Origin: a virus | Virus record (IMG/VR): IMGVR_UViG_3300042695_002043 | Location: 1-37,131 of that record | DNA: 37,131 nt | Reading direction: 5' to 3' (one strand) | In this document: one piece after another, positions 1-37,131 of the stretch | How the letters are laid out: each line of letters begins with the position of its first letter | Position numbering within the stretch: position 1 is the first letter of the stretch | The notes under the pieces: generated by a model | The model's database searches: none | What the model was told of the DNA's origin: nothing | Seen by the model: the letters and a program-made list of their open reading frames with translations, nothing else | Translations under genes and position numbers: made by a program

Positions 1-120
1 ATTTCGACGCACCAAAGGCGCGAGACTTACTTAGTCGACCGGTCCTCGCCACACTTTGCGTTTCGCAGTGGCCTCGCGGTTTCGATTAACGTGACTTCCA
101 CTCACGAGACCCCGAGGGGT
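1..120. repeat. Terminal direct repeat, left copy
   Basis: These 120 bases are identical to the last 120 bases of the window (37012-37131). An exact overlap of this size at both ends is the usual sign of a circular or circularly permuted molecule assembled from short reads. The unique genome is then 37,011 bp. The repeat lies inside the non-coding structured segment, so it is not a gene duplication. A true short terminal repeat of a linear phage is less likely but cannot be excluded without read mapping. Confidence 0.93.
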
Positions 121-325
121 CAAAGGATCGTGAGGGGTTCACACCCGCTACTCAAACGTGAAAAGGGTAATACTTGGTGGTATACGATCCTCGCCGTCTC
201 TCCGGCTGTCTCGCTTCCGACTCCAACTTGCTGGGTCCATGATGCCCTCGGTTGTGTCGTGCCCCCCCAAAATTCGATTCACGGTTTAGGCAGCGCTGCG
301 TTCCGGACCTAAAACCGCTTGCAAC
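1..325 (-). ncRNA. Structured RNA candidate, 5' part (continues at 37011)
   Basis: No convincing coding sequence lies in these 325 bases; the leftward gene 326-997 ends just before them. Read on the minus strand the segment is rich in stems. There is a 9-bp stem with one bulge (317-308 with 290-282), a 7-bp stem 134-128 with 107-101 that encloses a 5-bp hairpin with a CUCG loop (121-117 with 112-108), and a GGGU-GUGA-ACCC hairpin near 147-136 with a GNRA-type loop. A 7-bp stem (45-39) pairs with 36996-36990 across the window ends. The GNRA loop exists only on the minus strand, which suggests that strand is transcribed, like the flanking genes. I do not recognise the family. Confidence 0.55.
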
Positions 326-19475: not shown

Positions 19476-20402
19476 TCAAACAAAACTGAGTTGATCGTTG
19501 ACGAGCGCGGCAATGATCTTTTCCGTTTGTGGAATTCCCATTCCAAAAAACGGATCGTGTCCCGGTTCGCCCTTATCGTCCGTGTACTGTCCAAAAAACT
19601 TTCTCACAGCTTCCACGCTTGTGAAATCTGCGTGACCTTCTTTTCGCATCACCTGTTTGATCAGGGCGCACAAAGCAGAAAACCAAGGGCAAGCCATCGA
19701 TGTGCCAGACATACCGCGAAATCCGTTATTGGTTGAACACGAAATGATGTCCTGCCCAGGGCAACAAACGTCCATTTCTCGGCCAACCGAACTGAATGAG
19801 GATCGCTGGCCGTCTTTTCGATAGGCACCGACACAAAGGCCTTCTCGGTACCGTGCTGGGTAGCCAATGGTATTTCTTCGGCTATCGAAACCTGAGTTCC
19901 CTGCGGCAGAAACGACGATAACACCCTTGGACCCTGCGTACTCGAGAGCCTGACGCGTCGGCTCGTAAGGGCTGTCGGATCCGAGCGACATGGAAATGAC
20001 GTCGGCTCCATTGTCGACGGCCCAGCGGATGCCTTTTGTGATTCCTTCGGAAGATCCGCTGCCGCGATTGGACAAAACCTTCCCGACCAGCAGATCCGCT
20101 TCCGGGGCCAGTCCTATGCCCTCTCTACCTAGGACCGTTCCACTGCAATGTGTCCCGTGTCCATTGCCATCTCTCCAGCTTTCACCCTGGATAAATGATC
20201 GCGCCTCTACTGGTTCGGGAAGGAGGTCGTGGGAGTTCATCCCCGTGTCGAGAACCGCCACGCGGATGCCCTTTCCCGTGATGCCACGTTTCCAAATCGG
20301 TTCGAACGTGGCTTTCGGAATGTGCCATAGGTCGCCCGGCGTCGCAAAGGTGCCAACGTCGGAAACCAAATCCGGTGGAAGATAGACGGGAGGGCTTTTC
20401 AT
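19476..20402 (-). CDS. Subtilisin-like serine protease (S8)
   Basis: A 308-residue S8-family protease. The catalytic triad is intact: Asp52 in AVLDTGMN, His82 in GNGHGTHCSGT, Ser235 in MSGTSMACPW, with oxyanion Asn169 in SAAGNSG. There is no signal peptide and only about 40 residues before the core, so no long propeptide; a short N-terminal stretch may serve as its own inhibitor. The protein would be active in the cytoplasm or after membrane damage. It lies in the late region between the tail tube side genes and a secreted plus holin-like pair. I see no endolysin in this genome, so a role in lysis is a real possibility; structural protein maturation is another. Confidence 0.93.
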   Translation of the reverse strand: MKSPPVYLPPDLVSDVGTFATPGDLWHIPKATFEPIWKRGITGKGIRVAVLDTGMNSHDLLPEPVEARSFIQGESWRDGNGHGTHCSGTVLGREGIGLAPEADLLVGKVLSNRGSGSSEGITKGIRWAVDNGADVISMSLGSDSPYEPTRQALEYAGSKGVIVVSAAGNSGFDSRRNTIGYPARYREGLCVGAYRKDGQRSSFSSVGREMDVCCPGQDIISCSTNNGFRGMSGTSMACPWFSALCALIKQVMRKEGHADFTSVEAVRKFFGQYTDDKGEPGHDPFFGMGIPQTEKIIAALVNDQLSFV

Positions 20403-24825: not shown

Positions 24826-25956
24826 CTAACTGCCTTTGATGAAGGAAATACAATCCCATTTGGAATCGGCTGCGACGTATTCAAACGCAACTCGGTCGAC
24901 GACTGTGGGCGATGTGCTCAACGTCACGTTGGCGGCTGCAAGGTCGCCTCGGAAGCGGTAGTCACTTCCCCAGTTCACCACACGCGAACCGTTGGCATCT
25001 TGACGCAACCGGAAAATGATCACGCGTCCATCCATGGGATTTGTCGGGTTTGCAATGGTTCGGTTACCACCGAGAGTGATGTCGAATTTGTTCGCCGCTG
25101 CGGCATCGACGGCAATGGTGGCCGCGTCTGCCAATGCCTCGGGGGCCAAATCCAACGCATCGGTAAAAGTCTTGACGCCTGCGACGCTCTGGGCGGTGGT
25201 GGTCAACACAACGCCCGAGGTCGACAACTGCCCGTTCGCGAACACTAGCCCCGCCCCAATGCTCGCAACGCTTACCAACGCCCCGTCCCCGGCCAACAAA
25301 CCGTTTAACGTCGTCGTGGTGGAGCTCGATACGCTGTTGGGTCCTGCGGCACCAGTCGGGCCCTGTGGACCAGTCGCCCCAGTAGCTCCCGTCGCACCCG
25401 TCGCACCCGCTGGGCCTTGTGGTCCTGTCGCGCCTGCAGGACCGGTAGCACCCGCTGGGCCTTGTGGTCCTGTAGCGCCTGCAGGACCGGTCGCCCCGGT
25501 GTCTCCCCGAGGAATCGCGAAGTTGAAAACGGCGGCGCTCGAGGTGCCAATGTTGGTGATTGTCGCGCTAGAACCAGCGGCCCCGGTCGATACGGTGCCC
25601 ACGGTTATGGTGGCGGCGGATCCCGCGGCCCCGGCTGCACCTGTCGGCCCGGTCGGGCCTGTTGGTCCCTGGGGGCCAGTCGCTCCAATGGATCCCGTCG
25701 CACCCGCTGGGCCCTGTGGGCCAGTCGCCCCGGTGTCCCCTCGAGGAATCACGAAGGCCAAAACCACGGCTTGCGAGGTTCCGGTATTGGTCACGCTGGC
25801 CGAGGATCCTGGGGCTCCCGTCGTCGTGGATCCGACGTTGACGGTTACTGTACCTCCACCGCCGCCACCGCCGCCGCCATTTGGGGCACCGTAGCCGACG
25901 GCCAGCTCAACGACGATTGGGGGTGGTGGTGTGATGTCGATTTCTTCGGCTGCCAT
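24826..25956 (-). CDS. Collagen-like tail fibre protein
   Basis: A 376-residue protein with a glycine run (GGGGGGGGG near residues 27-35) and two collagen-like Gly-X-Y blocks (about 73-113 and 151-205; [13 protein letters not shown] type). Each block is preceded by a similar beta module: [20 protein letters not shown] and [20 protein letters not shown], each ending in [10 protein letters not shown]. The C-terminal part (about 210-376) is a beta-rich head ([20 protein letters not shown] region). Collagen stalks form triple helices in many phage tail fibres. This is probably the side fibre or receptor-binding fibre. The antisense frame is open but is only a shadow. Confidence 0.88.
25403..25492 (-). 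repeat. 45-bp tandem duplication in collagen stalk
   Basis: A 45-bp unit (about 25403-25447 and 25448-25492) is repeated with very few changes inside the collagen-like gene. It encodes 15 residues, five Gly-X-Y triplets, so the frame is kept. Recombination between such units can change stalk length. It is not a CRISPR: there are only two copies and no spacers. Confidence 0.8.
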
Positions 25957-36516: not shown

Positions 36517-36861
36517 TTACTTTCGATCTTTGGCCCAAGAAACGTAAGCCTTTGCGTTCGTGACATTTTTCCCTGGTTCATTCTCCGTTCGGTGTATCCA
36601 ATTCGTAACGACAGTCCCTGTCACCAAAATACGCAGTCGGTCCGCCAAGGAAAACTTGGTCACTGATTGACCGAAAATACAACCCTTGAAATGCCTTGGG
36701 GCGTCAACGAAAGCGCAGTCAGCCAAACGACCTCGCAATCTTCCGGGTGATGTAGCAAAGCTTTGCGTTTGTTTATACAATCTGCCAATCATTTTTTCCC
36801 ATCGTGTTCGCGTATCAGGTGCGTCTTGTAGTTCGTATGTTTGTTGTTCTTCGCATTCCAT
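36517..36861 (-). CDS. Hypothetical protein, 114 aa
   Basis: Read from ATG 36861 (MECEEQQTYELQDAPDTRTR), which has AGGAGG about eight bases upstream. The open frame extends upstream through the structured non-coding segment, but that part is the translation of an RNA-like sequence and not protein. The protein is basic in the middle (GRLYKQTQSFATSPGRLRGR) with a beta-rich centre (VDAPRHFKGCIFGQSVTKFS; LRILVTGTVVTNWIHRTENE). It is unrecognised. It is the first gene after the non-coding segment in the leftward direction. Confidence 0.7.
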   Translation of the reverse strand: MECEEQQTYELQDAPDTRTRWEKMIGRLYKQTQSFATSPGRLRGRLADCAFVDAPRHFKGCIFGQSVTKFSLADRLRILVTGTVVTNWIHRTENEPGKNVTNAKAYVSWAKDRK

Positions 36862-36886
36862 GATTTTCAAGCCTCCTAGTAAGTTG

Positions 36887-37011
36887 AAAAAAGCCCCGGG
36901 AGGGATTCGAACCCTCGCCTTCCATGCCCACACTAGCTCAATGAGCCGAAGGCACGGCTGTTCCGCCGCAATAACTTCCTGGGCTAAAAGGACCGGGCAG
37001 GGTGTGCCTGC
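36887..37011 (-). ncRNA. Structured RNA candidate, 3' part with tRNA-like T arm
   Basis: Minus-strand continuation of the segment at 1-325. From 37011 to 36997 comes hairpin GCAGG-CACAC-CCTGC, then CCGGTCC (36996-36990), which closes a stem with 45-39. Stem GCCCA (36983-36979) with TGGGC (36930-36926) encloses two hairpins. The end is a perfect T-arm lookalike, GAGGG-TTCGAAT-CCCTC, followed by CCGGGGC and a T run (36893-36888). The T arm and partial acceptor recall a tRNA or tmRNA 3' end, but no normal anticodon arm can be folded. It may be the end of a structured RNA with a terminator, or a phage copy of a host tRNA 3' end used as attP. Confidence 0.5.
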
Positions 37012-37131
37012 ATTTCGACGCACCAAAGGCGCGAGACTTACTTAGTCGACCGGTCCTCGCCACACTTTGCGTTTCGCAGTGGCCTCGCGGTTTCGATTAA
37101 CGTGACTTCCACTCACGAGACCCCGAGGGGT
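37012..37131. repeat. Terminal direct repeat, right copy
   Basis: This is an exact copy of positions 1-120. It marks the assembly overlap of a circular or circularly permuted genome. Counting it once gives 37,011 bp. Confidence 0.93.

What the first reader, a model, noticed from the sequence alone, without database searches (positions are those of the whole stretch)
1..325. Large ornate RNA candidate spanning the ends of the window (325 to 1, then 37011 to 36887)
About 440 bases between two leftward genes have no coding sequence but contain many perfect stems on the minus strand. They include a three-way junction closed by GGACCGG (45-39) with CCGGTCC (36996-36990). Inside it are a TCGAC/GTCGA stem (38-34 with 8-4) carrying a GCGCC-TTT-GGTGC hairpin, and a GCAGG/CCTGC hairpin. 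A 7-bp stem (134-128 with 107-101) holds a CUCG-loop hairpin. A GNRA-type hairpin exists only in minus-strand sense, and a tRNA-like T arm is at the 3' end. Known phage RNAs of this style (GOLLD, ROOL, tmRNA) are established classes; I cannot match this one to any of them, so it may be new. Because it straddles the cut of a circular genome, linear annotation would miss it.
Basis: partly seen in the sequence, partly recalled or inferred. Interest (0 to 1): 0.8.

Follow-up and report, generated by a model that had tools for sequence, protein, structure and literature searches.

The report
Phage array of anticodon-less tRNA mimics
The gap between two phage genes holds a row of RNA modules folded like transfer RNAs but without the part that reads codons; related, shuffled rows occur in about 80 uncultivated phage contigs and appear undescribed, although their function is unproven.

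Summary
The segment is real, non-coding and structured, but it is not one "ornate" RNA. On the minus strand it is an array of three tRNA-like modules: T1 (190-125), T2 (37056-36990, which is 45-1 plus 37011-36990) and T3 (36984-36893). Hairpin elements (X1, X2) precede T1 and T2. Each module has a 7-bp acceptor-type stem and a T-arm abutting its 3' strand, followed by T-rich sequence. It folds as a tRNA cloverleaf with a triloop where the anticodon loop should be.

About 80 IMG/VR phage contigs (5-205 kb) carry such modules, mixed with a few genuine tRNAs. For the T3 family, 26 sequences show strong covariation (65 double-sided changes against 21 in shuffles). The decoding arm ranges from a GNRA tetraloop hairpin to a 43-nt arm and only rarely keeps an anticodon loop. 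Modules recombine between phages: T1-X2-T2 is 97-98% identical to phages whose best shared protein is about 44% identical. Rfam has nothing beyond tRNA, where T3 scores below threshold. Cultured phages, plasmids and GTDB genomes gave no match.

Most likely function, by inference: host RNase P and RNase Z cut the transcript into stable tRNA-scaffolded small RNAs that act as decoys or regulators.

The parts
282..317 (-). Hairpin CGGTTTTAGG...CCTAAACCG just after the stop codon of ORF 326-997 (possible terminator or array leader)
   Evidence: Read from sequence. Retained in G001 with one indel.
191..280 (-). X1: leader/hairpin element ending GCCGGAGAGACGGC-GA, immediately 5' of T1
   Evidence: About 95-96% identical in G001. 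The hairpin ACAGCCGGAGAGACGGC occurs close to the 5' end of a module in 12 sequence contexts.
125..190 (-). T1: tRNA-like module type B; GGATCGT/ACGATCC acceptor-type stem, conserved TATTACCCTTTTCACGTTTGAGTA core, T arm GCGGG-TGTGAAC-CCCTC
   Evidence: Six distinct homologues: 98.2% of cells paired; two acceptor pairs and one T-stem pair change on both sides.
46..124 (-). X2: TTT linker and hairpin element ending GTGTGGC-GA, 5' of T2 (copy at 37057-37131)
   Evidence: Apparently unchanged in G001 and the L046/L049/L057/L058 group, two different phage backgrounds.
36990..37056 (-). T2: tRNA-like module type D (same as 45..1 + 37011..36990); cloverleaf with 7-bp acceptor GGACCGG/CCGGTCC, D-arm GACT/AGTC, triloop hairpin CGCGCC-TTT-GGTGCG in the anticodon position, T arm GCAGG/CCTGC
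   Evidence: MFE fold z = -3.4. Five homologues all paired; one acceptor pair C-G/U-A/U-G. In L076 and L086 the T loop is a 7-nt TTCAAGC.
36985..36989 (-). TTTTA linker between T2 and T3
   Evidence: Module 3' ends are followed by T-rich linkers in relatives.
36893..36984 (-). T3: tRNA-like module type A; D-arm GTTATTGCGGCGGAAC, extended arm CCGTGCC...GGCATGG in place of the anticodon arm, T arm GAGGG-TTCGAAT-CCCTC, acceptor GCCCAGG/CCGGGGC with one A-G mismatch
   Evidence: Model R1 72.8 bits, E 1.9e-18. Rfam tRNA only 24.3 bits against a 29-bit cut-off. Family covariation.
36887..36892 (-). T-run after T3
   Evidence: Read from sequence.
36517..36861 (-). Downstream ORF (114 aa, no Pfam match); GGAGG ribosome-binding site at about 36874-36878, so T3 ends about 30 nt before the start codon
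326..997 (-). Upstream ORF (223 aa, no Pfam match), same strand

Best explanation
Shown: the segment is an array of tRNA-like RNA modules. They keep the tRNA top half (7-bp acceptor-type stem, T-arm coaxial with its 3' strand; in T2 and T3 also a D-arm) but replace the anticodon arm with a GNRA hairpin, a triloop hairpin or a longer variable domain, so most members cannot decode. The modules are a horizontally exchanged cassette family in uncultivated phages. Inferred: the array is transcribed with its neighbours; host RNase P cuts 5' of each module and RNase Z cuts 3' of it (no CCA is encoded, T-rich trailers). This yields stable tRNA-scaffolded small RNAs and separates them from the X elements and the flanking mRNA. 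Inferred, weaker: the mature RNAs act as tRNA mimics, decoys or sinks for host enzymes or anti-phage factors that bind the tRNA elbow or acceptor, with the variable arm giving each its specificity.
For: T3 family covariation: acceptor 5 of 7, T stem 2 of 5 and lower-arm 4 of 5 pairs have double-sided changes; 93.3% of cells paired against 80.8% in shuffles; no slid register comes close. T1 covariation. Blind test on 39 distinct 3' halves picked only by T-arm plus CCGATCC: 32 have a 7-nt pairing partner within 130 nt upstream, against a mean of 1.7 for permuted acceptors; most of the other 7 contain CGTGG...CCACG type-C arms that start near the window edge. Lower arms range from GNRA tetraloops (GCGA, GCAA, GUAA, GAGA) to 43 nt. 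Bona fide tRNAs sit in the same arrays. Mosaic inheritance: X1-T1-X2 96% to G001, T1-X2-T2 97-98% to the L046 group whose best shared protein is about 44% identical, T3 about 92% to L055/L068. tRNA elbow recognition by RNase P, RNase Z and CCA enzymes, and RNase P recruitment by tRNA-mimic RNAs, are reviewed in PMC4810234.
Against: No expression or processing data. T1 and T2 inner helices do not vary among the available homologues, so only their outer stems are supported by covariation. T3 type-A modules carry A8 rather than U8, the window's T2 has a 5-nt T loop, and T1 and T3 each have one mismatch, so recognition by tRNA enzymes is not certain. No host factor or target is identified. The array is absent from most close relatives, so it is dispensable.
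Confidence: 0.55

Rival explanations
1. Punctuation only: the modules are processing signals (like mitochondrial tRNA punctuation) that cut a polycistronic early transcript; the excised RNAs have no function of their own.
For: In the window the array lies between same-strand genes and ends about 30 nt before a start codon. Conserved leader motifs follow modules ahead of different genes.
Against: Does not explain several tandem modules per gap (about 7 in 1.2 kb in L101, read), the conserved inner cores of T1 and T2, or the variety of arms.
Confidence: 0.2
2. A decaying phage tRNA array: ordinary tRNA genes turned pseudogene.
For: Real tRNAs occur in the same arrays, and type A includes tRNA-Thr-like members with 7-nt loops (L078, L079).
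Against: Compensatory changes keep acceptor, T and lower-arm stems paired. 97-98% identity is retained where proteins are about 44% identical or unshared. The lost anticodon loops are replaced mostly by GNRA tetraloops.
Confidence: 0.1
3. Functional tRNAs whose anticodon loop is interrupted by a short intron (ARAGORN calls T3 tRNA-His with a 19-nt intron).
For: ARAGORN -i calls.
Against: Homologues with a 4-nt loop have no room for an intron or an anticodon. The predicted amino acid changes with each variant. ARAGORN finds no tRNA without the intron option.
Confidence: 0.05
4. One large GOLLD/ROOL-like scaffold RNA in which tRNA-like domains are building blocks that assemble into a multimer.
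For: Phage origin; GOLLD and ROOL lie near tRNA islands, and GOLLD linkers can contain tRNAs (PMC12286853).
Against: No Rfam match to GOLLD or ROOL. Modules occur alone (G004) and in variable order and number, so no fixed global fold is conserved.
Confidence: 0.1

Closest known systems
Phage tRNA genes and tRNA arrays (Rfam RF00005)
   Same: Acceptor, D and T arm geometry; tandem clusters; a few members are genuine tRNAs
   Different: Most modules lack a 7-nt anticodon loop; window modules are below the tRNA cut-off or not detected; inner cores are conserved and exchanged as cassettes
tmRNA
   Same: tRNA-like top half with the anticodon region replaced by other RNA
   Different: No tmRNA match in Rfam or ARAGORN; modules of only 64-124 nt; several per array
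GOLLD and ROOL ornate phage RNAs
   Same: Large non-coding phage RNA, associated with tRNAs
   Different: No sequence or covariance-model match; modular and variable rather than one conserved fold (PMC12286853)
Plant-virus tRNA-like structures and mascRNA/menRNA
   Same: tRNA mimicry without decoding, expected to recruit tRNA enzymes such as RNase P
   Different: DNA phages; multiple tandem modules; mascRNA model only 14-15 bits against a 42.5-bit cut-off
Engineered tRNA scaffolds (RNA inserted into the anticodon arm; recalled from general knowledge, not looked up)
   Same: Foreign RNA domain carried in place of the anticodon arm on a tRNA body
   Different: Here natural, in arrays, and spread by recombination
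Phage-borne RNA decoys (phiTE RNA that mimics the ToxI antitoxin, PMC3475682, abstract only; T5 tRNA against PARIS, PMC11455837, abstract only)
   Same: Phage RNA able to neutralise a host defence
   Different: No defence target known here; unrelated sequence

Membership tests
tRNA | 7-bp acceptor, D-arm, 5-bp T-arm with TTCRANT loop, T-stem abutting the acceptor 3' strand | tested here: met
   T3 and the type-A family. T2 has this geometry but a 5-nt T loop; T1 only in part.
tRNA | 7-nt anticodon loop with U33 and an anticodon | tested here: not met
   Window: triloop in T2, 22-nt loop in T3; 4-nt loops in about 10 of 27 type-A sequences. A few relatives (L078, L079) do meet it.
tRNA | Scores above the Rfam tRNA gathering cut-off | tested here: not met
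   Window T3 24.3 bits against 29; T1 and T2 not detected. Several type-A relatives pass.
tRNA | Aminoacylated and used in translation | not testable with these tools
   -
tmRNA | tmRNA covariance model or ARAGORN tmRNA call, with tag reading frame | tested here: not met
GOLLD / ROOL | Match to the Rfam covariance model | tested here: not met
   on the window (the full stretch is split by the cut); on contiguous relatives.
tRNA-like structure (tRNA mimic) | tRNA-like top half with covarying stems and a non-decoding lower half | tested here: met
tRNA-like structure (tRNA mimic) | Recognised by a tRNA-binding enzyme | not testable with these tools
   Needs biochemistry.

The most novel reading that the evidence does not exclude
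A natural, evolvable tRNA-scaffold system: phages assemble and trade arrays of tRNA-bodied small RNAs whose anticodon arms are replaced by interchangeable domains, released by host tRNA-processing enzymes to act as decoys against host RNases, toxins or anti-phage systems that target tRNA.
Probability: 0.3. Interest if true: 0.9.

Novelty: new variant of a known kind. Interest (0 to 1): 0.74.

Why it matters
Phage tRNA arrays are usually read as translation aids or as counters to anticodon nucleases. Here anticodon-less tRNA mimics are kept by compensatory change and traded between unrelated phages, so some phage "tRNA" clusters must do something other than decode. The modules fall below standard tRNA and Rfam detection and may be widespread but unannotated. 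The system makes testable whether phages use host RNase P and RNase Z to produce scaffolded regulatory or decoy RNAs, and could supply natural tRNA scaffolds for RNA engineering.

Tried and rejected
BLASTN of array segments against INPHARED phages and PLSDB found no homologue; matches were short T-arm pieces or ordinary tRNAs. Two GTDB pattern scans found nothing, so no host could be named; the terminase's best-covering cultured relative is an Akkermansia phage at 23% identity, too weak for a host call. The intron-tRNA, tmRNA and GOLLD/ROOL readings were tested and dropped. Whole-region folding energy was uninformative. Searching with the neighbour protein 36517-36861 found no relatives. Literature searches found no description of such arrays, but only open-licence papers are held.

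Full report
WHAT IS THERE. The window is a circular virus record with a 120-bp end repeat. Its two ends meet in a gap of about 440 bp between two leftward ORFs (326-997 and 36517-36861), neither with a Pfam family. The phage encodes a GpA-type terminase, a lambda-type portal and a capsid protein. Read on the minus strand across the join, the gap holds: a hairpin after the upstream stop codon; X1, ending GCCGGAGAGACGGC-GA; T1 (190-125); X2 (124-46); T2 (45-1 + 37011-36990, contiguous as 37056-36990); TTTTA; T3 (36984-36893); TTTTTT; then a GGAGG ribosome-binding site and the start codon of the next gene.

THE MODULES ARE tRNA-LIKE. T3 is found by Rfam's tRNA model at 24.3 bits, below the 29-bit cut-off, and by ARAGORN only if an intron is allowed. 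T2 folds alone as a cloverleaf (7-bp acceptor, 2-nt spacer, 4-bp D-stem, 6-bp hairpin with a 3-nt loop, 7-nt variable region, 5-bp T-stem abutting the acceptor; z = -3.4). T1 has the acceptor and T arm around a strongly conserved core.

RELATIVES. Terminase relatives at 58-99% identity were fetched. G001 keeps X1-T1-X2 at 96%, then has the same GGACCGG/CCGGTCC stem enclosing different contents and no T3. G004 has only a T3-type module, in another intergenic gap beside DUF1064. The other relatives have none of the searched motifs. Pattern scans of IMG/VR with the T3 D-arm, with D-arm plus T-loop, with the T1 core and with T-arm plus CCGATCC gave 36, 26, 12 and 50 stretches. After removing chance and duplicate hits this is about 80 contigs (my tally), of roughly 5-205 kb. 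Many carry tandem modules; in L101 I count about seven in 1.2 kb (read), with acceptor-type stems, T arms and different cores. Some array members are real tRNAs (L059, L078). Type A alone is found by model R1 in 34 of 50 records searched at E 0.01; the type-A matches score 57-90 bits, whereas the weaker matches score below about 46 bits.

COVARIATION. For type A (A1, 26 distinct sequences, lower-arm loop removed), 93.3% of 520 cells pair (shuffled 80.8 +/- 1.0). There are 65 cells with double-sided changes (shuffled 20.9 +/- 3.9), and 11 of 20 pairs have at least one; sliding the register by one column drops pairing to 56%. Sequences were extracted with a pairing filter, which biases this upwards. 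However, the hits were chosen without any pairing rule, and of its 26 contigs only L054 (broken acceptor) and L079 (cut by the contig end) failed that filter. A second test without a pairing rule: 39 distinct 3' halves (T-arm + CCGATCC) have a pairing partner upstream in 32 cases against 1.7 expected from permuted acceptors. T1 shows two acceptor pairs and one T-stem pair with double-sided changes in six homologues. T2 has only one such pair in five homologues and does not exceed its shuffles, so its fold rests on geometry and energy.

NO ANTICODON. In 27 distinct type-A sequences the lower arm ranges from 4-nt loops, mostly GNRA (GCGA, GCAA, GUAA, GAGA), to 43-nt arms. Only a few, such as L078, have a plausible 7-nt anticodon loop. 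Type-C modules put 34-90 nt domains after a D-arm-like hairpin with a CGGYAA-type loop whose stem differs between members (CGTGG/CCACG, GCATAG/CTATGC, GAATCG/CGATTC). No CCA follows the acceptor in the listed modules; linkers are T-rich.

MOSAIC CASSETTES. T1-X2-T2 is 97-98% identical to the L046/L049/L057/L058 group, although the best shared protein is about 44% identical; T3 is about 92% identical to L055/L068, which share no protein detected in the DNA held. The modules therefore move or are conserved independently of the phage backbone.

CAVEAT ON ASSEMBLY. Both this record and G001 are cut inside the array, as expected where assembly graphs tangle on sequence shared by phages. The T1-X2-T2 continuity in this particular genome therefore rests on a 120-bp overlap. 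The same order exists uncut in the L046 group, and T2-T3 and X1-T1 are each contiguous within one end of the window.

MECHANISM. Shown: tRNA-like architecture, loss of the decoding loop, exchange between phages. Inferred from known biochemistry of elbow-recognising enzymes (PMC4810234): RNase P and RNase Z release the modules. Speculative: the released RNAs act as decoys or scaffolded regulators. Rivals are punctuation only, decaying tRNAs, intron-containing tRNAs and a GOLLD/ROOL-like scaffold; the last three are disfavoured by the data above.

NOVELTY. No match outside tRNA in Rfam, none in INPHARED, PLSDB or GTDB by the searches made, and no paper found. I class it as a new variant of a known kind (tRNA mimic / phage tRNA array) rather than categorically new.

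Noticed in passing
window 1-120 and 37012-37131; L001 and L004 (two ends of G001): Both circular relatives are cut inside the array, suggesting that sequence shared between phages tangles assembly graphs there.
   Followed up: partly
L047, L043, L054, L063, L068, L069, L126; L004 (374 onward): A conserved leader hairpin GCCAACCCACTTCGGGGCGGCG(TATGGAGG) follows the last module and precedes different small ORFs.
   Followed up: no
L060, L101, L116: Inter-module X elements recur (e.g. CATGGCGAAGGCCATG versus ACGGCGAAGGCCGT, which looks compensatory), so they may be a second structured family.
   Followed up: no
L048, L059, L062, L086, L094, L101, L115: Arrays often directly follow a gene for a small secreted-looking protein ending ...GWYATVIY; one tested member has no Pfam match.
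   Followed up: partly
L004 428 onward: In G001 the array is followed by an ORF beginning [31 protein letters not shown], which resembles the phage Gp37/Gp68 (DUF5131) family from memory; not tested.
   Followed up: no
window 24826-25956 and 19476-20402: Collagen-repeat protein and a subtilase-family protease encoded by the phage.
   Followed up: no
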